From Algihabitans albus (GTDB lineage: Bacteria; Pseudomonadota; Alphaproteobacteria; Kiloniellales; DSM-21159): DNA of 64,000 nucleotides. The notes below the pieces were generated by a model, which ran no database searches, was not told the origin of the DNA, and saw only the letters and a list, made by a program, of their open reading frames with translations. This document shows positions 3,171 through 48,063 of this stretch, piece after piece (position 1 is the stretch's first letter; the number at the start of each line of letters is the position of its first letter). The stretch covers positions 548 through 64,547 of the forward strand of contig NZ_QXNY01000004.1 of NCBI RefSeq assembly GCF_003572205.1, read 5' to 3'. The position numbers and the translations under genes were made by a program.

Positions 3171-3196
3171 CGGCTGATCGAAGGGCTCGGCTCTCC

Positions 3197-3940
3197 CTAA
3201 CGATAGTCCGGGTTTGGATAGTCGAAGCGGCAGCCAGCGTCCCACTGGCTACGCTGGTTTCCATGGGCCGGAACACCACCCGCGTCTTTGATCATGCGCG
3301 CCAAGTGAAGCATGTTCCAGGTCATGAAGGTCGTGTTCCGATTGGTGAAGTCGTTCTCCGGCCCGCCTGACTCGGGATCGAGATAGGAAGGACCGGGTCC
3401 GGCTTCGCCCAGCCAGGCGGCATCGGCCTGGGGCGGGATCACGTAGCCGAGATGCTGCAGCGAATAGAGAATGTTCATGGCGCAATGCTTGGCACCGTCC
3501 TCGTTACCGGTGATCAGGCAGCCGCCGACGCGGCCGTAGTAGGCGTATTGACCTTGTGGGTTGAGGTCGCTCGAGTTGCCGTAGAGCCGTTCGATCACCT
3601 GCGTGCAGACAGAAGACTTCTCGCCAAGCCAGATCGGGGTGGTGACGACAAGGATATCCGCCGCCTGGACCTTGGCATAGAGTCCGGGCCAGTCGTCGAC
3701 CTCCCAACCATGCTCGGTCATATCCGGGTAGACGCCGCTGGCGATGCGATGGTCGACCGGCCGCAACGTCTCCACCGTGACGCCGTTCTTCTCGAGGATG
3801 GCCTGGGAGATCCGGATCAGGCCATCGGTATGGGACTGCTCCGGCGACCGCTTAAGCGTGCAATTGAGGAACAGGGCCTTCAGATCGGAGAAATCCCAGC
3901 GGCTCTCGGAGCACCAACGTTCCTGCAACTCGTTCAGCAT
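3197..3940 (-). CDS. Flavodoxin-like NAD(P)H-dependent oxidoreductase
   Basis: About 247 residues form a flavodoxin-like fold. The first strand ALFLNCTLKRSPEQSHT carries the FMN-phosphate loop, and ADILVVTTPIWLGEKSS and YYGRVGGCLITGNEDGAKH are the further FMN-contacting segments of the NADPH-dependent FMN reductase family. It probably reduces quinones, azo compounds or an unknown acceptor in the cytosol. The start at 3940 is chosen because GGGAG lies about 7 nt upstream of it. An alternative ATG at 3979 lacks such a site. It is convergent with the beta-propeller gene and divergent from PPK2. Confidence 0.8.
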   Translation of the reverse strand: MLNELQERWCSESRWDFSDLKALFLNCTLKRSPEQSHTDGLIRISQAILEKNGVTVETLRPVDHRIASGVYPDMTEHGWEVDDWPGLYAKVQAADILVVTTPIWLGEKSSVCTQVIERLYGNSSDLNPQGQYAYYGRVGGCLITGNEDGAKHCAMNILYSLQHLGYVIPPQADAAWLGEAGPGPSYLDPESGGPENDFTNRNTTFMTWNMLHLARMIKDAGGVPAHGNQRSQWDAGCRFDYPNPDYR

Positions 3941-4119: not shown

Positions 4120-4923
4120 ATGTCGAAACACCGTCCACCACGCTTGGCCGACGTCGATCTCCGACTGACGGCCGACCGAGACAGCTATGACACCGAGCTG
4201 CTGCAGCTGCAGGAAGAGCTGCACGACTTGCAGCGCGCGCTGCGCGCCGCCCGCGGGCGCGCCATCGTAGTCTTCGAAGGTTGGGATGCCGCCGGCAAGG
4301 GTGGCGCGATCCGGCGGATGACCGCTCGCCTGGACCCGCGCGGACTCAAGGTCTGGCCGATCGGACCGCCGGGCCAGCTCGAACAGCGGCACCACTACAT
4401 GCACCGTTTCTGGAAGCGTCTGCCAGAGGAAGGCAGCCTGGCGATCTTCGACCGCTCCTGGTATGGCCGGGTCTTGGTCGAGCGGGTCGAAGGCCTTGCG
4501 CCCAAGTCCGACTGGCAGCGCGCCTACCGCGAAATCAATACCTTCGAACGGATGCTGCGCGACGACGGTGCCATGCTGGTCAAGCTGTTCATGCATATCT
4601 CGTCTGGCGAGCAGTTGCACCGCTTCCAAAGACGGCTGGACGATCCGACGAAGCGCTGGAAGCTGACTCCGGAGGATCTGCGCAACCGCAGCAAGCAGCA
4701 TGCCTATGAAAAGGCGATCGCAGCCATGCTGAGGCGCACCTCGACATCCCACGCTCCTTGGACGGTGATACCGGCGGAGGACAAGCGCTACGCCCGCCTC
4801 GCCGCGATGCGAACCGTGATCGAGGCTCTGCACCCTGCACTGCCGCCGGCACCGACCCATATCGATTCGGATGTTGCTCGGCTGGCGCTCGACCTGCATC
4901 TCAAGCTGCCGCAAGAAGGCTGA
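4120..4923 (+). CDS. ppk2: Polyphosphate kinase 2 family protein
   Basis: The 267-residue protein carries the PPK2 Walker A motif GWDAAGKGG (residues 54-62), the Walker B/lid segment IFDRSWYGRVLVERVEGL and the conserved HHYMHRFWKRLP stretch. The family transfers phosphate between inorganic polyphosphate and nucleotides (ADP/GDP or AMP). Which substrate class applies here cannot be decided from sequence reading alone. The start at 4120 gives the usual family N-terminus (KHRPPRLADVDL). An upstream in-frame ATG at 4051 has a better ribosome site (GAAGA) and would add 23 residues. Confidence 0.9.
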   Translation: MSKHRPPRLADVDLRLTADRDSYDTELLQLQEELHDLQRALRAARGRAIVVFEGWDAAGKGGAIRRMTARLDPRGLKVWPIGPPGQLEQRHHYMHRFWKRLPEEGSLAIFDRSWYGRVLVERVEGLAPKSDWQRAYREINTFERMLRDDGAMLVKLFMHISSGEQLHRFQRRLDDPTKRWKLTPEDLRNRSKQHAYEKAIAAMLRRTSTSHAPWTVIPAEDKRYARLAAMRTVIEALHPALPPAPTHIDSDVARLALDLHLKLPQEG

Positions 4924-39812: not shown

Positions 39813-40541
39813 GTGCAAGTACTCAGATTTATGGCCTTGGCCGGCGCACTAAGCGCCGCATTACTGACGACACAAACGGCCGCCGCCGCGGTTATGGACG
39901 TGACCGGTACGACGACCGGCGGGTCCTTTGACTCCTTCAGCAGGCCGGGCGCCCCAGGCGTGCATGGGTTGGAGCTGCGCGGCGGACGCCAGAAGACTCG
40001 TGGCGACTGGGAACTCGGGCTCGGGACGCAGACCAGCACGCGCGGCGGCTTCCGTCAGGCGCAATTCGGTTGGGGCAAGCACCTCGACGTCTGGGCTTTT
40101 GAATATGTCTACAGCGCCGGATCCGCCCAACTCTGGCTGTGGGACCCGGAGACCGCGCGCTCGAGCGATCCGCTGCTGACCTACTCCGGCTCCCTGCTCA
40201 CCGGCAACGCCGTCAGTATCTTCGCCAAACGCCAGGCCCAGATCCAGATCACCGAGTTCGACGGCCAGAGCGTGAACTTCCGGGTGGGCGATGCGGCGAA
40301 CAAGAACCTCTCGGAGACCGCGATCTTCGCCAGTGCCGGCTTCGCCGACGGCTTCAACATCCGCGGGCGTCTGGCGCTGCTCGCCGGCGGCGGTTCCAAA
40401 CACGCCTTGACCGTGCAGGCGGGCGAGGTGGCCGCCGTCGCCGCCGTTCCCCTGCCCGCGGCTGCCTGGTTCCTGCTGACAGGCCTCGGTGGCCTGGCCG
40501 GCCTGCGTTGGCTGAAAGGACGCGAGAGTCGCGGCACCTAA
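39813..40541 (+). CDS. Exported VPLPA-CTERM sorting-domain protein
   Basis: The 242-residue protein starts at GTG 39813, with GAGG 9 bases upstream. It has a signal peptide (MALAGALSAALLTTQTAAAA) and ends with the tripartite sorting tag VPLPAAAWFLLTGLGGLAGL then RWLKGRE. That tag is a VPLPA motif, a hydrophobic helix and a basic tail, as processed by exosortase-type transpeptidases in Rhodobacterales-like bacteria. The body is a beta-rich secreted domain without recognised homology. No exosortase gene is in this window. A terminator follows. Confidence 0.82.
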   Translation: MQVLRFMALAGALSAALLTTQTAAAAVMDVTGTTTGGSFDSFSRPGAPGVHGLELRGGRQKTRGDWELGLGTQTSTRGGFRQAQFGWGKHLDVWAFEYVYSAGSAQLWLWDPETARSSDPLLTYSGSLLTGNAVSIFAKRQAQIQITEFDGQSVNFRVGDAANKNLSETAIFASAGFADGFNIRGRLALLAGGGSKHALTVQAGEVAAVAAVPLPAAAWFLLTGLGGLAGLRWLKGRESRGT

Positions 40542-40799: not shown

Positions 40800-41360
40800 A
40801 TGAAGAAAGCTCTTCTTTTTCTATGCGTGATCGTCACTGCTTGCGCACAAGTCGGCCCGCTTCAACAAGACGCCAAGTCATGCAGCAAAGCAGGTGGTTT
40901 CTTCGGTTACTCATACTGCGTCGATGCGGCGCTGCGAAAATCCGTCGCTGGCAACCCAAACGAGCAGGCATCCGCCGTCTTTTCTCATATCGTTTGGCTG
41001 CGTGGACAGGTCGGCGAGAAGGCTCTGTCCCATCAGCAAGCGATCGAACAGCTGGATTTTTTCATAGCACAGCAAGCCGCAGCGGAAACTCCCGAGGTCG
41101 GGACCTCGGTACTGATCGGCCTCATCGGCGCGGCCGCCATTGTTGCGGCGGCCTATGCACTGAGCGAGAACCGCGACGAGGACGACGACCGAGACCGCAG
41201 GTACGCCTACCGGGAGCCCCTGATGTGCTCCAAGGTCGAGTACGGCTATCCCAAATGTCGCGGGAGAAAAGCCTGTGGAGACACCTGCATCCGCGCGACA
41301 GAGACGTGCAACGCGGGGCGAGGCAGTGCCTGCAACCTTCGCCACCACAGCTATCCCTAG
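40800..41360 (+). CDS. Lipoprotein with internal membrane helix and Cys-rich tail
   Basis: The 186-residue protein opens with a lipoprotein signal (MKKALLFLCVIVTAC, Cys15). It then has a helical region (VFSHIVWLRGQVGEKALSHQ), a hydrophobic helix near residues 100-119 (VLIGLIGAAAIVAAAYALSE), a charged linker (NRDEDDDRDRR) and a C-terminal domain with at least five cysteines (CSKVEYGYPKCRGRKACGDT, then CIRATETCNAGRGSACN). The Cys-rich end suggests disulfides in an oxidising compartment. No family is recognised. Confidence 0.65.
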   Translation: MKKALLFLCVIVTACAQVGPLQQDAKSCSKAGGFFGYSYCVDAALRKSVAGNPNEQASAVFSHIVWLRGQVGEKALSHQQAIEQLDFFIAQQAAAETPEVGTSVLIGLIGAAAIVAAAYALSENRDEDDDRDRRYAYREPLMCSKVEYGYPKCRGRKACGDTCIRATETCNAGRGSACNLRHHSYP

Positions 41361-41752
41361 CGTACGAGATCCGGTTGCAGTCGGTGTCGGCGCGAACTGA
41401 TTTGGACCGAGACAGCGCAAACCATCGACGACCCGCTCGACACGAGCTGTCTGTGAGGTGACAGTTAAAGTGGGGGCACCGGGAGATCCGGGACTATCCG
41501 GGACGTGGCGGGAAATAACGGGACGATTTCAATACCTTGCGGGCCAAATCGCCCCTCGCGACCCGTCGAGACGCCCCAACCGCCGCGCCACTTAAAGTGG
41601 GGTCACCGCTGACAGCGAAACCGCAGAACTCCGCCGTTTCGATTGGCGCGAAACTGCGAAGGTGAGCCGCAACGGCCCACCTTGCAAAACTGTACAATGC
41701 CGAAAAAACAGTTACTTAGAACTTGTGCATCGCACAAAGGTGAGCCGCACTA
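41361..41752. other. Repeat-bearing intergenic region near prophage left border
   Basis: No gene was recognised. The region contains a direct repeat TTAAAGTGGGG[G/T]CACCG (41465-41481 and 41592-41608). A CGGGA array at ~10-bp spacing covers 41479-41523, followed by a second direct repeat AAGGTGAGCCGCA (41659-41671 and 41737-41749). A hairpin lies at 41659-41683 and a small hairpin TTGTGC-ATC-GCACAA at 41723-41737. It may hold a mobile-element terminus, the end of the prophage or an eroded insertion sequence. Confidence 0.5.
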
Positions 41753-42157
41753 TCAGGGTGTTTCGGGCCAGGTCCAATCGCCGCTCACGCGGTTCCTTAG
41801 GTTCCAGGCGTCAACGAGCACCTCTTCCACTTCGCGCGCCTCGACCCGCAGGCCATCGAGCTGCAGTGGGCCGTCGTCAGCTGGGCGAAAACGGCACTCG
41901 GCGGGAACGCGAATGACGGCTCCCATGAGGTTCTGCCGATCGTAAGCGATGTCGACTACGCCCGTCCGCAGATCGGCGTAACCGCTCTGAAGCGAGAAGC
42001 TGGCTGGCGTGGGAATGCGCTCAGACACGATATCAGCGCAGGCACTAATGAGTCGCTCCTGTGGTGTCGGTTTGAACATCTGGTAGCCAGCCCACCCCGC
42101 GCCGGCTAAGGCCAGCAGCGCGAACATGATGATGCTGTTGCGCTCACCCGCTTCCAC
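41753..42157 (-). CDS. Membrane-anchored protein, tandem paralog B
   Basis: The 134-residue product starts at GTG 42157, with AGAGGT upstream. It has one N-terminal membrane helix (IIMFALLALAGAGWAGYQMF) followed by a soluble domain with two conserved cysteines (LISACADIV and AECRFRP). It ends NRVSGDWTWPETP. It is a clear paralog of the gene at 42210-42635, sharing TPxSFxL, YDRQNxxGAxIR, GPLQLxxLRVE, REVExxLVDAWN and GDWTWPETP. No known family is recognised. Both genes run in the direction of the prophage repressor and may be expressed in lysogeny. Confidence 0.7.
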   Translation of the reverse strand: MEAGERNSIIMFALLALAGAGWAGYQMFKPTPQERLISACADIVSERIPTPASFSLQSGYADLRTGVVDIAYDRQNLMGAVIRVPAECRFRPADDGPLQLDGLRVEAREVEEVLVDAWNLRNRVSGDWTWPETP

Positions 42158-42209
42158 TACGACCTCTTGTGTAACGGCGTAAAAAGCTGCGCAAAGGCTA
42201 GATACTGAG

Positions 42210-42635
42210 TCACGGCGTTTCGGGCCAGGTCCAGTCCCCCCTGATGCGGTTCGTCCCGTTCCAGGCGTCGACCAAGATGGGCTCCACTTCACGGGTCTCG
42301 ACGCGAAGCCTGGTGAGCTGCAGAGGGCCAGCCTCGGCTGGCTCGAAGGTGCAAGACGAGTTGTACCTGACGATCGCTCCGAAATAGTTCTGGCGCTCAT
42401 AGAAAACGGTTACTTCTGCGTCGCGGAAACTGACCGAGCCTCGATCCAGGACAAAGCTCGACGGCGTTCGGATGAATTCGATCACGATGCTTGCGCAGGC
42501 GTCTGTCAGGTGCTGCCGGGCCGCCTCTGCGCGTTCGCGAGGCGTCAGCTCAACCGCGTCCATCACGTTCAGGGTGATGGAGGTTCCGACGGCGAGCGTC
42601 AGTACAGCGATCGCCACTTTCTGAAATCTATCCAT
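42210..42635 (-). CDS. Membrane-anchored protein, tandem paralog A
   Basis: The 141-residue protein has a membrane helix at residues ~6-24 (VAIAVLTLAVGTSITLNVM) and a soluble part beginning LTPRERAEAARQHLTDACAS. The paired cysteines and the C-terminus NRIRGDWTWPETP match paralog B at 41753-42157. It starts 67 bases beyond the repressor stop, and paralog B follows after 52 bases, suggesting one transcript. Position and topology fit a lysogenic-conversion or superinfection-exclusion protein, which is inference only. Confidence 0.7.
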   Translation of the reverse strand: MDRFQKVAIAVLTLAVGTSITLNVMDAVELTPRERAEAARQHLTDACASIVIEFIRTPSSFVLDRGSVSFRDAEVTVFYERQNYFGAIVRYNSSCTFEPAEAGPLQLTRLRVETREVEPILVDAWNGTNRIRGDWTWPETP

Positions 42636-42702
42636 CGCATCGTCTGTCAGCTACCAAGGCTGGCAATGCTACCTCGGCTAGAGCCGGCAGGCGATGTCTA
42701 TT

Positions 42703-43383
42703 TCACAACTTTCGCTTGACATAAACGACGGTGGCGACGCGACGGATGTAGGAGGACTTAATCTCCTCGCGGTATAGTTCCTGCTCGCCATCCTCAGGCG
42801 GGAGCCACCCTTCGATGACGATCATTTCAAGCGACTCGGACAGGAGACGCTTGAGAGCGACGGTGCCGTCTGCGCGCTCCACAAAGACGATATCGCCCGG
42901 CCGGCGACTGGAATTCGGCGAGCAGAAGCAGAGGAATCCCTGTCGCACGCCTTCGGGGTGCAGGCTCTCGCCAACTGCCATGACGGCGAAAGCCTCGGGA
43001 TCTTCCAGGCGCAGCTCTGCCTCAACCGCCATGGCATCTCCCTGAAACCAGTTCCTTAGGCCGCATGACGCAAGGCCAACGACCGTATAACCGCGGTTTG
43101 CAGAAATCTGCACGGCCTGTTCATCCGTGGCAGCTTCCAAAGCTCCGCTGTTTCGCCCCGTGGCCAGCCAGTCGACGCCGACGTCGCAGAACTCCGCGAC
43201 TCTCACCGCATCACCGAGCCGAATCTCTGTTTCGCCTCTGAGATAGCTGTAGAGAGTTCGCTGGTTGATTCCCGTCCCCACCGCAACGGCCTTCGCCCCG
43301 CCGCCTCGACTAACCGCTTCGCGCAGGCGTTCGACTCGTGAGGTGTCGGCGGAATCGCCGTTTGTCGCGATTGCCTGTGTCAT
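42703..43383 (-). CDS. S24-family phage repressor (LexA/CI-like)
   Basis: The 226-residue protein has an N-terminal helix-turn-helix (residues ~15-75; AKAVAVGTGINQRTLYSYLR) and a C-terminal S24 peptidase domain. The catalytic Ser140 (VGESLHPEG) and Lys178 (TVALKRL) are present. A candidate self-cleavage site is Cys107-Gly108 (GLASCGLRNW). Self-cleavage implies SOS-type induction rather than the Mu c repressor mechanism. It is divergent from Ner, and a perfect palindrome lies directly before its start. Confidence 0.9.
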   Translation of the reverse strand: MTQAIATNGDSADTSRVERLREAVSRGGGAKAVAVGTGINQRTLYSYLRGETEIRLGDAVRVAEFCDVGVDWLATGRNSGALEAATDEQAVQISANRGYTVVGLASCGLRNWFQGDAMAVEAELRLEDPEAFAVMAVGESLHPEGVRQGFLCFCSPNSSRRPGDIVFVERADGTVALKRLLSESLEMIVIEGWLPPEDGEQELYREEIKSSYIRRVATVVYVKRKL

Positions 43384-43395
43384 AGCGAATTCGCT
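43384..43395. promoter_or_regulatory. Candidate repressor operator palindrome
   Basis: The perfect 12-bp palindrome AGCGAATTCGCT directly abuts the repressor start codon. The core TTCGC recurs in two TTTCGCA boxes, 10 bp apart, at 43452-43458 and 43462-43468. Those sit between a TTGACT (43445-43450) and the next 30 bases of the rightward early promoter region. The spacing suggests one protein binding the same face of DNA. Confidence 0.5.
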
Positions 43396-43544
43396 GATTT
43401 TTGCGCGATAAGGTCAGAAAAATGCAGTTTTCCGAACTTATGAGTTGACTGTTTCGCAGATTTTCGCATTGTCTAGCACGTTCGTTGTTTTAGACACCCG
43501 AAGAAAGCCGGCCTGGCAGGGCCGGCGGTGGAGGCGAGGCGGAC

Positions 43545-43838
43545 GTGGCGAAGGGCGGCTGGCATCCGGAAGATATCAAGGCGGCCGTTCGAAAGCGCGG
43601 CACGACCTTGACCCGGCTGGCCCTCGACAACGGGCTCTACGAGTCCGCCTGCCGCGTCGCCTTAAACCGGCCGAGCCTTGCGGGCGAACGAGCCATTGCC
43701 GCCTTTCTCGGCGTGTCGGCGCAGAGCCTTTGGCCGTCCCGATACCAGCGCGACGGCACCCCCAAGCATCCGCGCGCTGGGGCGCAGGATCGTGCGACCA
43801 CCCGACGCGGTCAACGTCTTAGCGTGAAGGTCGCGTAG
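43545..43838 (+). CDS. ner: Ner/Nlp-family DNA-binding protein
   Basis: The 97-residue protein begins MAKGGWHPEDIKAAVRKRGT and has a helix-turn-helix (LTRLALDNGLYESACRVALN, then RPSLAGERAIAAFLGVSAQS) followed by LWPSRY, matching the Ner/Nlp family. Ner is the early negative regulator that turns off repressor and early transcription in Mu-like phages. It is the first rightward gene, followed at once by the gene at 43841. Confidence 0.88.
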   Translation: MAKGGWHPEDIKAAVRKRGTTLTRLALDNGLYESACRVALNRPSLAGERAIAAFLGVSAQSLWPSRYQRDGTPKHPRAGAQDRATTRRGQRLSVKVA

Positions 43839-43840
43839 AC

Positions 43841-44296
43841 ATGGCCAAGCGCCACCAGGACGAGCGGCAACTGACGTTAGAAGGTTGGGTCGACCTGAGC
43901 GCGACGGCGGAAGGCTCCGCGCGCAACCTCAGCTTGGGGTCGGCGCTGGCCGGCTGGATCTCGGAAGCTCTCGCAGGGCGCGACCGGCACACTGTCGCGG
44001 CCGACATGTCGCGCCTGACCGGAGACCCTATCGCCAAGACGACAATCGACGCCTGGACGGCCCAGGCCAAGAAGAAGTGGCGGATGCCGTTGGAGTATCT
44101 GCCGGCACTGATCGAGGCGACAGGCGCCTATTGGCTGCTCGAACGGCTCGCCGAGACGGTCGGCTGCCGCGTCCTTCTGGCGAAAGATCATGTCTATTAC
44201 CGCATGGGCCGACTGCAGGAGCAGCGGCGGCAGCTGGAGGAGCAAGAGCGCTACCTCTCGCGCCTCACGGCGCGCGACGAGGAGAGCGGCTCATGA
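43841..44296 (+). CDS. Phage early protein of unknown function
   Basis: The 151-residue protein is helical and charged. It includes LSLGSALAGWISEALAGRDR, then DMSRLTGDPIAKTTIDAWTA, and a C-terminal coiled-coil stretch (RMGRLQEQRRQLEEQERYLS). The middle looks like a helix-turn-helix, so DNA binding is plausible. It starts 2 bases after the ner stop, in an operon position between Ner and the transposase. I do not recognise a named family. Confidence 0.7.
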   Translation: MAKRHQDERQLTLEGWVDLSATAEGSARNLSLGSALAGWISEALAGRDRHTVAADMSRLTGDPIAKTTIDAWTAQAKKKWRMPLEYLPALIEATGAYWLLERLAETVGCRVLLAKDHVYYRMGRLQEQRRQLEEQERYLSRLTARDEESGS

Positions 44297-45141
44297 GGGC
44301 GTGCGTGGACTCCGATATCCGGCAGCGACTTCTGGCGGATTTGGCCGCGCAAGTGGCGGTCAATCCCGATCCCACCCTAGTCGCTGCCCATCGCGCGAAC
44401 GCGCTGCGCTGGATCGGCACCTTCAGCGGGGCCGAAGCCCTGAAGGCTTGGCGCACCCGCTACATGGGCGGCGGGGAAGACCCGCTGCAGCTGAAGACGG
44501 CGGATCTGTCCGGCACACTCCTAGAAGCCCTGATCGAAATCCGTGCGGCGGCGGCTTCGGCGGATTGGCGCGATGGTCGCCCCCGCCGCCTGAAGATCAT
44601 TGGGCGTCTGGATCGCGTAGCCACAGGCCGAGCAATTGTAACGGTCCGCGCCTGGTCGGCGCTCCTGAAGGCTGAGAATCGTCTTCTTTCTGCGGTCAAG
44701 GCAGGGCACGCAATACCAGGGGCGCTGCTCGACCGATTCCACCGACTCGCCGATCAGGTAGACGAAGGCGCCGGGTCCCACGGATCTGAGGTTGGCGCTC
44801 TGAAGGTCCAGATCCGCCTGCTGAAGTTCAACGTTGCGCTTTTCAAGCTCGACGGCTTGCTGTTTCAGAGCGTTGATTTCCTGCAGCGCCACCAGCTTCT
44901 GATCCTTCAGCGTCTCCACCTGCTCCAACAGATCGCGGGCGGCCTGGAGCGCCGACTTCAGCTCTTCCGGCTGCTTGCCCTTGAAGAGGCCTGGCAGGCG
45001 GACGACGAGATCGACCAGCCGGTTCCCCGTCCTCAGCGCGAGGTCGGCGGTTTCGAGATCGGTGGCGTCCACTCAAGAGTCTCCGGCACGAGTGATTGCA
45101 AAGGCCACCAGCCTACCACCACAGCGGAGTCCAGGCCATGA
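44293..45141 (+). CDS. Possible early gene; only its first ~75-95 codons look genuine
   Basis: An ATG at 44293 overlaps the previous stop (ATGA). The first part (MRACVDSDIRQRLLADLAAQ, then NALRWIGTFSGAEALKAWRT) looks like a real small phage protein. From about 44520 onward the frame runs antisense to the zinc-ribbon gene at 44521-45072, and its translation (LLKFNVALFKLDGLLF, LQRHQLLILQRLHLLQQ) looks like the shadow of a coiled coil. The frame ends by chance at 45141. A plausible reading is a gene truncated by insertion of the minus-strand gene. Confidence 0.3.
   Translation: MRACVDSDIRQRLLADLAAQVAVNPDPTLVAAHRANALRWIGTFSGAEALKAWRTRYMGGGEDPLQLKTADLSGTLLEALIEIRAAAASADWRDGRPRRLKIIGRLDRVATGRAIVTVRAWSALLKAENRLLSAVKAGHAIPGALLDRFHRLADQVDEGAGSHGSEVGALKVQIRLLKFNVALFKLDGLLFQSVDFLQRHQLLILQRLHLLQQIAGGLERRLQLFRLLALEEAWQADDEIDQPVPRPQREVGGFEIGGVHSRVSGTSDCKGHQPTTTAESRP
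44521..45072 (-). CDS. Coiled-coil/zinc-ribbon protein, opposite to early operon
   Basis: The 183-residue protein starts at GTG 45072 with GGAG upstream. It has a coiled coil (about residues 38-95; LLEQVETLKDQKLVALQEIN, ALKQQAVELEKRNVELQQAD), then GPGAFVYLIGES. A zinc ribbon follows with WYCVPC and, 22 residues later, YNCSACGYAIQTP. The PGxFVY / WxCxxC / KKTILSLQ pattern resembles uncharacterised proteins found in many prophages and integrated elements, from memory only. It is the only leftward gene within the early operon, a typical moron position. Confidence 0.75.
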   Translation of the reverse strand: MDATDLETADLALRTGNRLVDLVVRLPGLFKGKQPEELKSALQAARDLLEQVETLKDQKLVALQEINALKQQAVELEKRNVELQQADLDLQSANLRSVGPGAFVYLIGESVESVEQRPWYCVPCLDRRKKTILSLQERRPGADRYNCSACGYAIQTPNDLQAAGATIAPIRRSRRRTDFDQGF

Positions 45142-47273
45142 AGGCCTGGTGGTCCGCATCCGAACTGGCGGCGGCCACTCTGCCGGGACTGCCGGGGACA
45201 CGAAGAAAAGTCGCTGAACGCGCAGAGCGTGACGGCTGGACCAAGCGCGAGACAGTGGGGAACGGCGGCACCACTCACGAGTATCACGTCGCCAGCTTGC
45301 CGGAAGCGGCGCGGGTGGCGCTGGCGCTGCGGGCGCAGGCGGCGCCGGGAGAGGCCGAGCTGCTGGCGGAGGCGGCGGAGACGGGCGGCGGGCAGCGGGG
45401 CAAGGCCGAGGCGCAGGCCTGGGCGGTGCAGCGCTGCGCGCGGCTTTGCCGGGAGGCCGGTCTGTCGGCGCGGGCCGGGCGGCCGGCCTTCGTGGCGGCC
45501 TATGGCGTGGGTCAGTTGAGCGCGCCGGACTGGGTGCGCGCCGCGCTGCCGACGATCTCGGCAAAGAGCCTGGAGCGCTGGAGCGCGAAGGCGAAGGCGG
45601 CCGGCGCGGCCGGGCTGGCGGACAGACGCGGGCGGCACCGCAAGGGCGCCGGGCGGATCGACCGCGACCCCGAGATGGTGCGCCTGATCGAAGGGCTGCT
45701 GTCGGCGAATCCGCACGCCAGCTCCAAGCACGTCATGCGGGCGTTGCGCGCCCGTTACAACGGCGAAACGCCGCCTTATCGCACGGTGCAGCGCTGGCTG
45801 CAGAGCTGGCGCGAGGCCGAAATCCAGCTGCACGCCCATGTCAGCGACCCGGACGGCCATCGTAGCCGCCTCGGATCGGCGATGGGCGCCGCCTCGGCGG
45901 GTATCAGCCGGGTCAACCAGCTTTGGGAACTCGACTCCACCCCGACCGACGTGGTGCTGGCGGACGGGCGGCGCCACGCGGTCCTCGGGGTGATCGATGT
46001 CTATTCCCGGCGCATGCTCTTCCAGGTGGCGCGGACCTCGACGGCGGCGGCGGTGCTTGCCCTGCTGCGGCGCGCGATCCTGGAATGGGGCGTCCCCGAG
46101 ATCGTGAAAACCGACAATGGGGCGGACTACGCGTCTCGGGCGGTCGGCGCGGCCCTGGCCGCGCTGCAGGTGGATCACGATCTCTGTCAGCCCTTCCGGC
46201 CAGACCTCAAGCCATTCATCGAGCGGGGCCTGGGTACGATGTCCCGCGACCTGGTGGAGCTGCTGCCGGGCTACGTCGGCCACGACGTGGCGGAGCGGGA
46301 GGCGATCCGCAACCGCGTATCCTTCGCCAGGCGCTTGATGGACGGGCGCGGCACGCCCCGCGAAGAGAACACGCCGGCCGAGGCGCCCGAGCTGACGCCG
46401 GCCGAGTTCCAGGGCTTCTTGGATCGCTGGTGTAGCCATCTCTACGCCCACGACCCGCACGGCGGGCTGAACAAGAAGTCGCCGACGCAGCAAGCGGCCT
46501 CCTGCCGCGCGCCGCGGCGACGCGTCGAGAACGCCGAGGCGTTGGCGATCTTGCTGTCCGAGCTGCCAAGCAACGACGGCTGGCGCATCGTCCAAAAGAA
46601 GGGGATCTCCGTCGAGGGCCGCTTCTACATCGCGCCTGAGCTGGGGGCCTGGATCGGGCGGCGAGTGCGGTTGCGCATGGACGATGCCGACGCGGGCCGG
46701 GTGTGGGTGTTCGATCCCGACGAGACCTTCCTTTGCATTGCTGAAGCACCGGAGCTGACGGGCGTCGATCGCGCGGCGCTGGCCGCCGCAACCAAGGCGG
46801 TGCAGCGGCAACATCTGCGCGAGGGACGCGCCAGGCTCCGCGCGGCCGAGAAGGCTGCTCAAGTCGACGATATCGCCCAAGAGATCCTGGCGCTGGCGGA
46901 GAAAGAGCACGGCAACATCGTGGCGCTTGAGGGTCGCGGTACCGGTTACCGCACTGAAGCCTTGAACGCCGCTGCCGAGGCAGCGGCGGCCGGCCCGAGA
47001 CAGGGCACGGCACCCGATCTCACGGACGAAGAGAAGGCCGCGGCCGACGCGCTCTTCGAGGAGCTGGAGCGCGGCGGCAAGCCTGCCTCGGCCGAGCTTC
47101 ACAGCCTCGACGGCCGCCCCTTCTTCGCAACCGACGAGGACTTTCTGCGCTGGGTATTGGCGCACCCGGATCAAGTGACAGCGGAAGACCGCAGCTACGC
47201 CGAAGAGCTGCTCAAGCGGCCAGCGATGCGGCTGCTGCTCGACCTCGACGACGAAGCCCGCGCGGCGGGCTGA
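45138..47273 (+). CDS. Mu-type DDE transposase A
   Basis: The 711-residue protein starts MKAWWSASELAAATLPGLPG, a Mu-type N-terminal DNA-binding domain. It has further HTH domains (SAKSLERWSAKAKAAG, SSKHVMRALRARYNGETPPY) and an RNase H-like catalytic core with Asp266 (LWELDSTP), Asp326 (VKTDNGADY) and Glu362 (PFIERGLGT). A Mu C-terminal beta-barrel follows (RVRLRMDDADAGRVWVFDPD). It cuts and joins phage ends for integration and replicative transposition. The D-to-E spacing is 35, shorter than in MuA. It is followed by its ATPase partner. Confidence 0.93.
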   Translation: MKAWWSASELAAATLPGLPGTRRKVAERAERDGWTKRETVGNGGTTHEYHVASLPEAARVALALRAQAAPGEAELLAEAAETGGGQRGKAEAQAWAVQRCARLCREAGLSARAGRPAFVAAYGVGQLSAPDWVRAALPTISAKSLERWSAKAKAAGAAGLADRRGRHRKGAGRIDRDPEMVRLIEGLLSANPHASSKHVMRALRARYNGETPPYRTVQRWLQSWREAEIQLHAHVSDPDGHRSRLGSAMGAASAGISRVNQLWELDSTPTDVVLADGRRHAVLGVIDVYSRRMLFQVARTSTAAAVLALLRRAILEWGVPEIVKTDNGADYASRAVGAALAALQVDHDLCQPFRPDLKPFIERGLGTMSRDLVELLPGYVGHDVAEREAIRNRVSFARRLMDGRGTPREENTPAEAPELTPAEFQGFLDRWCSHLYAHDPHGGLNKKSPTQQAASCRAPRRRVENAEALAILLSELPSNDGWRIVQKKGISVEGRFYIAPELGAWIGRRVRLRMDDADAGRVWVFDPDETFLCIAEAPELTGVDRAALAAATKAVQRQHLREGRARLRAAEKAAQVDDIAQEILALAEKEHGNIVALEGRGTGYRTEALNAAAEAAAAGPRQGTAPDLTDEEKAAADALFEELERGGKPASAELHSLDGRPFFATDEDFLRWVLAHPDQVTAEDRSYAEELLKRPAMRLLLDLDDEARAAG

Positions 47274-47337: not shown

Positions 47338-48063
47338 ATGCGCAATCGTTTCGTCAAGACGGCCAACGTGCGGCGGTTCCTGGGCGCCGTCCAGTCACTG
47401 GACGATCGCGGGGCGCCTGAGGCCAGCCTGGTGCTGGCAACCGGCGACGCAGGCTATGGGAAGAGCCGCTGCGGCGTCTGGTTCGCGACGACGCAGGATG
47501 CAGCGCACGTCCGGGTGCATGCGGCCTCGACGCCGAACTGGCTCCTGACCGACATCGTCCGGCAGCTGGGCGAGGCCAAGCCGGCGCGTTCCTCGGAAAA
47601 GCTATTCGGACAAGCGGTCGCGATCCTGGCGCCGCATCCCCGGCCGATCGTGGTCGACGAGGTGGAGCATGCGTTGCGCGATCTCACGGTGATCGAGACG
47701 ATTCGCGATCTCTCCGACGCCTGCGAGATCCCGGTCATCCTGATCGGGCGCGAGCATGTGGTCGGGCGTCTGAAGCGGGAGCGGCAGATCTGGACTCGCA
47801 TCCACGCCCGCGCGGAGTTCGGCCCGGCTACGGAAGAGGACGTGAAGCTGTGCGCCGAGGAGCTGTGCGAGGTGCCGCTCCAGCCGGAGGTTGTCGCCCG
47901 AATCTGGCAGGAGTCGGAAGGCCATATCCGCGAGGTGGTCAAGGCGCTGAAGACCGCCGAACGGGTCGGATTGCGCCACCGGGGCAAGGCGGTGACGGCC
48001 GCCATGGTCGCCGATCGGCCGCTGTGCCAGGACCACCAACGCCTCAGCCGGAAGGCCGCGTGA
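47338..48063 (+). CDS. Transposition ATPase B (MuB-like AAA+)
   Basis: The 241-residue protein has Walker A GDAGYGKS (residues 36-43), Walker B PIVVDEVEH, and the AAA segment VILIGREHVVGRLKRERQIW. It corresponds to the target-selection ATPase that forms filaments on target DNA and stimulates the transposase. It starts about 64 bases after the transposase stop. Its own stop overlaps the next start (TGATG). Confidence 0.92.
   Translation: MRNRFVKTANVRRFLGAVQSLDDRGAPEASLVLATGDAGYGKSRCGVWFATTQDAAHVRVHAASTPNWLLTDIVRQLGEAKPARSSEKLFGQAVAILAPHPRPIVVDEVEHALRDLTVIETIRDLSDACEIPVILIGREHVVGRLKRERQIWTRIHARAEFGPATEEDVKLCAEELCEVPLQPEVVARIWQESEGHIREVVKALKTAERVGLRHRGKAVTAAMVADRPLCQDHQRLSRKAA

What the first reader, a model, noticed from the sequence alone, without database searches (positions are those of the whole stretch)
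41753..42635. Tandem paralogous membrane-anchored proteins downstream of the prophage repressor
Two consecutive genes encode one-TM proteins that share a strongly conserved soluble domain (REVExxLVDAWN, then NRxxGDWTWPETP) and two cysteines. They run in the repressor's direction and start 67 bases after it, so they may be expressed when the prophage is silent. Lysogeny-expressed inner-membrane proteins are the classic form of superinfection exclusion or host-altering morons. I recognise no family.
Basis: partly seen in the sequence, partly recalled or inferred. Interest (0 to 1): 0.65.

Follow-up and report, generated by a model that had tools for sequence, protein, structure and literature searches.

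The report
Prophage membrane proteins beside the repressor
A dormant bacterial virus carries two sister genes, next to its silencing gene, for small membrane-anchored proteins that probably help keep rival viruses out, and that look like members of a widespread, so far unnamed protein family.

Summary
Two tandem genes (42635-42210 and 42157-41753, minus strand) encode one-TM proteins, 55% identical over 111 aa, with the quoted motifs and two cysteines each, starting 67 bases after an S24 repressor. I mapped the prophage ends (41452 and 84349, 5-bp duplication CTGTC): the genes lie between repressor and left end of a Mu-like prophage. The closest other phage fetched has one copy in the same place. 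No Pfam or PADLOC match, and no NCBIfam match near its cut-off. Profile-profile comparison, two models with the same topology and shared viral structural hits place the soluble domain, tentatively, in a superfamily with P-x-S and QNxFGA motifs that none of these libraries names; direct HMM searches with that superfamily do not recover these genes. Relatives sit in cargo-gene positions of other phages, and all three hits in the survey loci lay next to the repressor. That slot is enriched for hydrophobic segments (31 of 52, versus 31 of 574 ORFs downstream of the transposase and 83 of 370 noise ORFs). Best reading: lysogeny-expressed cargo, most likely superinfection exclusion at the inner membrane. 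Expression and function are inferred. A new variant of a known kind.

The parts
42210..42635 (-). Gene 1 (P0001), 141 aa: N-terminal hydrophobic segment, then helix + four strands + helix (predicted); C47 and C95; QNYFGA motif
41753..42157 (-). Gene 2 (P0002), 134 aa from GTG: tandem paralogue of gene 1 (55% identity over 111 aa)
42703..43383 (-). S24-type prophage repressor (HTH_3 + Peptidase_S24), 67 bases upstream of gene 1
42636..42702 (-). 67-base repressor/gene 1 gap without a terminator-like or promoter-like site in the consensus scan
41452..41475 (.). Left end of the prophage (TGTGAGGTGACAGTTAAAGTGGGG); 17 of 24 positions match the inverted right end, which ends at 84349 in window coordinates (outside the window)
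41447..41451 (.). Target-site duplication CTGTC (second copy at 84350-84354, outside the window)
41584..41606 (.). Inner copy of the end repeat (CCACTTAAAGTGGGGTCAC type), probably a transposase binding site (inferred)
43841..44296 (+). Early transcriptional regulator (phrog_2345), divergent from the repressor
45138..47273 (+). MuA-type transposase (rve, Mu-transpos_C, HTH_Tnp_Mu_1; phrog_310)
   Evidence: scanned from 45096
47338..48063 (+). MuB-type DNA transposition protein (phrog_296)

Best explanation
The two genes are cargo of a Mu-like prophage, placed behind the repressor so that they are made while the prophage is silent. Each protein sits in the inner membrane by one N-terminal helix and puts a small cystatin/NTF2-like domain, probably with a C47-C95 disulphide, into the periplasm. 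The most likely task is superinfection exclusion: the domain meets a component of an incoming phage (tape measure or ejection proteins), or the host protein it uses at the inner membrane, and stops DNA entry. The tandem copy, about half diverged, would widen the range of targets or form a mixed complex. Shown by sequence: position inside the prophage, co-orientation, hydrophobic N-terminal segment, paralogy, a single-copy homologue in a related phage. Supported by profile comparison and predicted fold, not proven: the domain superfamily. Inferred: co-transcription, topology, disulphide, exclusion, target.
For: Prophage ends and target duplication put the genes inside the phage, gene 2 ending 301 bp from the left end. 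The closest other phage fetched (transposase 62% id, L124) has one homologue, 75 bases after its repressor (from the ATG at 4706) and about 290 bp from its own left end, with E 7e-26 against gene 2 and 2e-18 against gene 1. Slot survey: 31 of 52 distinct tight slot ORFs have a strong hydrophobic segment, versus 31 of 574 ORFs downstream of the transposase and 83 of 370 noise ORFs. Superfamily link: hhalign E 5.9e-6 and 2.5e-5; same H-E-E-E-E order with QNxFGA at the same turn; shared BFVD hits. All three superfamily hits at E<0.05 among 16,706 ORFs of 159 survey loci lie next to the repressor. Relatives lie just before the tape measure gene in ES18, beside a DUF4041 gene, and between repressor and integrase in LPM4. 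DUF4041 is the central domain of the entry-blocking nuclease SNIPE (PMC13190303, passages). Precedents for membrane proteins that block injection: P22 SieA, HK97 gp15 (PMC10883804, passages). In Fc02 the ORF after the repressor is transcribed in the lysogen (PMC9936078, passages).
Against: No expression or exclusion data for this phage, and I found none for any superfamily member. The Fc02 slot gene e4 has no assigned function; exclusion there maps to olg1 and gene 10. PADLOC has no match. Direct HMM support is weak: gene 1 to phrog_13160 E 0.023, gene 2 0.44; phrog_13160 and the superfamily profile A4 gave no hit at E<=0.001 in the window's own genome, and the profile did not list L124's gene at E<=1. 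The gene 1 model is moderate (mean pLDDT 67). No promoter-like site was found. Mu, D3112 and MuM16-1 have no annotated gene in this slot, HS6 none leftward in the stretch shown, and RcapMu holds four slot proteins below the hydrophobicity threshold.
Confidence: 0.45

Rival explanations
1. Lysogenic conversion for another benefit: the proteins alter the host envelope (stress, surface properties) or block conjugative DNA transfer rather than phages.
For: Membrane anchor plus NTF2/cystatin-like fold; among the structural neighbours are VirB8-like and TraE domains of conjugation machines (Z 6.4 for 5jbs and 5.8 for 5i97; 3ub1 Z 8.9 and 7pkw Z 8.1 for the related domain). Slot contents are diverse, e.g. 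YbjQ with zinc ribbon in L115 and, by eye, RS1, which does not point to one function.
Against: By the tool's own note Z under 8 may mean only a common arrangement, and the two above 8 belong to the related domain; the plasmid search found one match at E 0.9. Positions before the tape measure gene fit phage entry better.
Confidence: 0.27
2. Membrane-bound partners of the repressor: they sense an envelope or host signal and tune induction.
For: Same strand as the repressor and similar spacing (67 and 75 bases) in two phages.
Against: Soluble domain predicted on the far side of the membrane from the repressor (inference); slot genes change family freely while the repressors were found with one iterated profile.
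Confidence: 0.1
3. Lytic-cycle genes (for example lysis or virion related) that only happen to lie there.
For: Small TM proteins are common in lysis cassettes (general knowledge).
Against: They lie on the strand opposite the early and transposition genes, between repressor and left end.
Confidence: 0.07
4. Recently captured genes with no selected role.
For: Very narrow direct distribution: only the own genome among 98 searched; own genome plus three weak hits among 385 class genomes; no relative in genome contigs by a two-pattern scan.
Against: Third-position excess of differences between the paralogues, an intact homologue in the same place in a second phage, intact frames.
Confidence: 0.08

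Closest known systems
phrog_13160 and other PHROGs without description (2320, 16400, 3403, 21933, 26910, 9700)
   Same: P-x-S and QNxFGA motifs in register by profile comparison, same predicted topology
   Different: Genes 1 and 2 carry a C-terminal REVE..LVDAWN..GDWTWPETP extension, partly kept in L124 and not seen in the nine domain pieces of A6; direct HMM scores are below clear significance
ES18 gp20, annotated 'possible moron; function unknown'
   Same: Hit (E 1e-8) by a superfamily member, the lipoprotein-like L209; a phage cargo gene of unknown function
   Different: Sits between tail genes and the tape measure gene, not behind a repressor; not compared directly with gene 1
Inner-membrane superinfection exclusion proteins such as P22 SieA and HK97 gp15
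   Same: Prophage-encoded, membrane-located (gp15 by prediction); block DNA injection (PMC10883804, passages)
   Different: No sequence comparison was made here; no exclusion shown for our genes
Accessory gene e4 after the repressor in B3-like phage Fc02
   Same: Same slot relative to the repressor, transcribed with it in the lysogen (PMC9936078, passages)
   Different: No assigned function; sequence relation not examined; not in all beetreviruses
VirB8-like periplasmic domains
   Same: One TM plus NTF2-like fold (recalled for VirB8; fold matches)
   Different: Fold-level resemblance only, with modest Z

Membership tests
Mu-like transposable prophage | MuA-type transposase and MuB-type ATPase | tested here: met
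   rve, Mu-transpos_C, HTH_Tnp_Mu_1; phrog_310 and phrog_296
Mu-like transposable prophage | TG...CA ends with inverted repeats and 5-bp target duplication | tested here: met
   ends at 41452 and 84349, CTGTC on both sides; empty site not shown
Mu-like transposable prophage | Leftward repressor near the left end | tested here: met
   Repressor stop 1251 bp from the left end
P-x-S / QNxFGA domain superfamily (phrog_13160 group) | Significant direct HMM match between genes 1/2 and a family model | tested here: inconclusive
   phrog_13160 E 0.023 and 0.44; no hit at E<=0.001 in the own genome with phrog_13160 or A4. phrog_20018 matched part of gene 1 at 4.2e-5; its relation to the superfamily was not tested
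P-x-S / QNxFGA domain superfamily (phrog_13160 group) | Profile-profile similarity with both motifs in register | tested here: met
   hhalign E 2.5e-5 over 58 columns, probability 75%; E 5.9e-6 over 29 columns, probability 85%; E is for a single comparison
P-x-S / QNxFGA domain superfamily (phrog_13160 group) | Helix + four-stranded sheet with QNxFGA at the turn between strands 2 and 3 | tested here: met
   Two separate AlphaFold2 models (moderate confidence, good)
Superinfection exclusion protein (functional class) | Expressed in the lysogen | not testable with these tools
   Only position, orientation and the Fc02 precedent
Superinfection exclusion protein (functional class) | Reduces infection by other phages | not testable with these tools
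   No phenotype data
Known defence families of PADLOC-DB 2.0.0 | HMM match | tested here: not met
   0 families for P0001, P0002, P0003 and three related slot proteins at E<=0.1
VirB8-like / NTF2-like proteins | Structural match well above background | tested here: inconclusive
   Best Z 6.7 for gene 1; Z 8.9 and 8.1 for the related domain
HK97 gp15 / YebO | Sequence similarity | not tested
   No gp15 sequence was compared

The most novel reading that the evidence does not exclude
The P-x-S / QNxFGA cystatin-like domain is a general prophage exclusion module of the periplasm. Phages of several types (Mu-like, lambdoid, P2-like) fit it to different anchors (TM helix, lipid, zinc ribbon plus TM) to stop incoming DNA at the inner membrane, and Mu-like phages keep a dedicated envelope-cargo slot for such genes behind the repressor.
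Probability: 0.3. Interest if true: 0.75.

Novelty: new variant of a known kind. Interest (0 to 1): 0.5.

Why it matters
Many prophage cargo genes have no known role. If right, this links a set of 'hypothetical' phage genes to one domain, gives a two-motif signature to find more, and points to a fixed place in Mu-like phages where envelope-acting cargo can be collected and screened. It makes one question directly testable: do small periplasmic proteins of this fold block phage DNA entry?

Tried and rejected
Direct searches that found nothing clear beyond self: tblastn of gene 1 in 50,697 phage records and 72,556 plasmids (one match at E 0.9 over 38%); 98 genomes, own included; viral contigs with gene 1 and with A1 (only the copy of this phage; pattern scans that reach close relatives, so L124 was missed there and came in through its transposase); genome contigs with A1 (two patterns, 73 stretches, 0 relatives); gene 1 against PDB sequences (0); P0003 in phages (0). 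In 385 class genomes A1 gave three hits besides self, at E 0.001-0.008. I read the frames of one (L010) and took it as chance; the other two (L008, L009) were judged only by their short, weak matches. NCBIfam gave only E>=0.12 for genes 1 and 2, far below the cut-offs. phrog_20018 matches part of gene 1 at E 4.2e-5; it rang in none of 96 genomes and in no control genome, which decides nothing, and I did not pursue it.

Weak points. The hydropathy survey uses automatic ORF choice; several slot ORFs are probably spurious, the control ORFs are not verified genes either, and noise ORFs alone give 22%. Slot ORFs had no upper length limit and could be cut by a contig end; control ORFs were complete and 70-300 aa. 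35 of 160 loci had no detected repressor and 7 more had it at a contig edge. In one search L124 was part of the model it scored against, so that score is not used; searches are the test. The members that built the profile were found with a profile (A4) that already held L072, L200 and L103; only the position of the hits is independent. L103 and L200 start 114 and 162 bases after their repressors, outside the tight window, so they are not among the 56. Of 24 phage records hit (several are GenBank/RefSeq pairs), seven were read in context, and their anchors were not examined. Foldseek against PDB gave nothing at E<=0.001 for gene 1, nor did BFVD. The empty site was not shown: of two congeners, one matched the left flank partly (70% id) and one not at all. 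The B3 stretch fetched did not reach its repressor. The superfamily profile found only E>=0.053 in PDB sequences. Papers: 'superinfection exclusion' with 'NTF2-like' and 'prophage' gave 0; 'Mu-like prophage' with 'Alphaproteobacteria', 'lysogenic conversion' and 'repressor' gave 1, off topic by its abstract. I did not search the papers for the PHROG numbers.

Full report
WHAT IS THERE. Gene 1 (42635-42210, minus strand, 141 aa) and gene 2 (42157-41753, 134 aa from the GTG with a good ribosome-binding site) are tandem paralogues, 61 of 111 residues identical. Each has one N-terminal hydrophobic segment and two cysteines. The repressor just upstream passes the Pfam cut-offs for HTH_3 and Peptidase_S24. 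The 67-base gap holds no terminator-like site. The scan of 41400-43900 found no sigma-70-like promoter and three terminator-like sites (2.4 expected), one of them weak and inside the repressor gene on its strand.

PLACE. The window was extended with the neighbouring stretches of the same contig. Matching end repeats gave the prophage ends: TGTGAGGTGACAGTTAAAGTGGGG at 41452 and, inverted, TGTAGCGCGCCACTTAAAATGGGG ending at 84349 (17 of 24 positions identical), with CTGTC directly outside both. The prophage is therefore 42,898 bp, and the two genes lie between its left end and the repressor. Transposase and MuB-type protein confirm the Mu-like type. Three genomes listed as the same class as the window's (G202, G346, G348) share contig lengths with records titled Alphaproteobacteria or alpha proteobacterium, so the host is most likely an alphaproteobacterium (inference).

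DIRECT HOMOLOGUES. These are rare. The only clear one found outside this phage is in L124 (IMGVR_UViG_3300044274_000321), whose transposase is 62% identical. There a single gene (4706-4305 without its stop) begins 75 bases after the repressor and ends about 290 bp from a left end that starts with the same TGTGAGGTGACAG. BLASTP: 34% over 132 aligned positions with gene 2 (E 7e-26) and 35% over 101 with gene 1 (E 2e-18). So the gene is probably an old resident of this place in this phage group, duplicated in our phage (or reduced in the other). Third codon positions carry 58 of the 114 differences between the copies (32, 24, 58).

THE SLOT. In class genomes with a transposase hit (10 of 385, own included), the nine other genomes were fetched. 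Slot genes read by eye: a TM protein with the domain (G180), another TM protein (G194), signal-peptide-like proteins in G202, G069 and G429; none recognised in G262, G346 and G399, and contig edge in G348. An iterated profile found a repressor in 125 of 160. In 7 it lay at a contig edge; of 118 examined, 56 had an ORF of at least 70 aa starting within -60 to +75 bases of the repressor stop on its strand, 52 of them distinct at 70% identity, our phage included. A hydrophobic segment (18-residue mean at least 1.6) occurs in 31 of 52, against 31 of 574 distinct ORFs of 70-300 aa downstream of the transposase (Fisher p about 1e-21) and 83 of 370 noise ORFs taken by the same rule at random antisense points (p about 1e-7). 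In 22 of the 31 the segment starts within the first 40 residues. Of ten slot proteins scanned, eight had no Pfam family above its cut-off; the other two had YbjQ_1 and DUF4875. The slot is not always used: Mu, D3112 and MuM16-1 have no annotated gene there, HS6 none leftward in the stretch shown. RS1 has a YbjQ-like protein with a zinc ribbon (by eye) and RC1 a gene of the same length, and RcapMu has four genes there with no segment reaching 1.6. Accessory genes in P. aeruginosa Mu-like phages are known (PMC4378225, passages). In Fc02 the ORF after the repressor (e4, no assigned function) is part of the lysogen transcript, while exclusion was shown for olg1 and gene 10 (PMC9936078, passages).

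THE DOMAIN. In G180 the slot gene P0003 has a TM and a NGFG..VR motif, and matches phrog_13160 (E 2.4e-5). Three further slot proteins, L072 (Mariprofundus), L200 and L103, share a motif P-x-S followed by KNxFGA or KNxYGA. A profile from these four and two relatives (A4) hit 8 of 372 class genomes at E<=0.001, three of them sources of its own rows and five new; the window's genome was not among the hits. By eye, two of the five new proteins have a TM segment in the frame shown (L207, L208), one looks like a lipoprotein (L209), one ends a 471-residue frame with hydrophobic stretches (L210), and one anchor was not traced (L206). The three-sequence profile of genes 1 and 2 and L124 matches the superfamily with hhalign E 5.9e-6 (A4) and 2.5e-5 (A6, 58 columns, both motifs in register), probabilities 85% and 75%. 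No Pfam family matched any of nine members; fourteen PHROGs did at E<=0.1, none with a description. A profile from six members outside the survey loci, run on 16,706 ORFs of 159 survey loci, gave three hits at E<0.05 (L072 2.6e-5, L200 3.9e-4, L103 0.027). All three are the ORF next to the repressor on its strand; the next, L059 at 0.11, is not; and L124's gene was not listed at E<=1.

STRUCTURE. Gene 1, modelled with three sequences, has a moderate model (mean pLDDT 67; ten-residue means 70-88 over residues 31-120): helix, four strands, helix. The superfamily domain of L072 with L200 and L103 gives a good model (83.7): helix and four strands. In both the QNxFGA motif sits at the turn between strands 2 and 3. 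Solved neighbours are cystatin- and NTF2-like, including VirB8-like domains; Z is at most 6.7 for gene 1 and 8.9 for the related domain, so this supports a fold class and no function.

IN OTHER PHAGES. tblastn with three superfamily members hit 24 phage records at E<=0.1 (13, 5 and 6, several in pairs). Seven, with E from 2e-17 to 5e-4, were read in context: ES18 gp20 and KPP5665-2 GP14 directly before the tape measure gene (ES18's annotated 'possible moron', next to a DUF4041 gene), LPM4 gp54 between repressor and integrase on their strand, P840 ORF20 among tail genes, Medea1 gp07 before tail assembly gene I, VHML ORF47 after gene D, PAJU2 ORF026 between antirepressor and endolysin genes. These are places where cargo genes are commonly found (general knowledge).

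HOW IT MOST LIKELY WORKS. Expressed with the repressor, held in the inner membrane, domain in the periplasm, interfering with DNA entry of other phages. Position, hydrophobic segment and neighbouring contexts are shown; the rest is inference supported by precedents (P22 SieA, HK97 gp15, SNIPE; PMC10883804 and PMC13190303, passages). Another envelope benefit, or a block to conjugation, is the main rival.

VERDICT. A real and well-placed feature. It is a new variant of a known kind (prophage cargo probably expressed in lysogeny), with a superfamily unnamed in Pfam as the more general and more interesting result.

Noticed in passing
41452-64000 of the window, continuing to 84349 in window coordinates (L005, L006): A 42.9-kb Mu-like prophage with both ends; its last gene before the right end (L006:399-1241) looks like a D12-class adenine methyltransferase (recalled family, not scanned).
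   Followed up: partly
L023:1-1818 (genome G001, same genus): A protein with the superfamily domain (P0004, phrog_13160 E 5.1e-11) lies beside broken pieces resembling that adenine methyltransferase (by eye): probably the remnant of a related phage.
   Followed up: partly
L006:1405-1481 (outside the window, right flank): A tRNA-Arg gene (anticodon CCT) lies 55 bp beyond the prophage's right end.
   Followed up: partly
40800-41360: Host gene ending about 90 bp from the prophage's left end: 186 aa, lipoprotein-like N-terminus (VTACAQ) and several cysteines; no Pfam match at E<=1.
   Followed up: no
39813-40541: 242-aa protein with a C-terminal VPLPAAAWFLLTGLGGLAGLRWL stretch that resembles a VPLPA/PEP-CTERM sorting signal (recalled); no Pfam match at E<=1.
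   Followed up: no
L036:388-873 (phage RS1) and L115:4089-4691: YbjQ-type heavy-metal-binding domain with an N-terminal zinc ribbon in the repressor slot of Rhodobacter-related Mu-like phages (L115: PF01906 E 7.2e-29; RS1 and the zinc ribbons by eye).
   Followed up: partly
L029 (flipped) 3171-3749, genome G194: Another one-TM slot protein, of a different family (phrog_7191, E 1.5e-11).
   Followed up: no
L148:1-741, L186:1507-2244: Slot membrane proteins in two Mu-like contigs that begin alike (YWLYA.IS.VGL.VVT.KPSL), a possible second recurring slot family; no Pfam match for L148.
   Followed up: no
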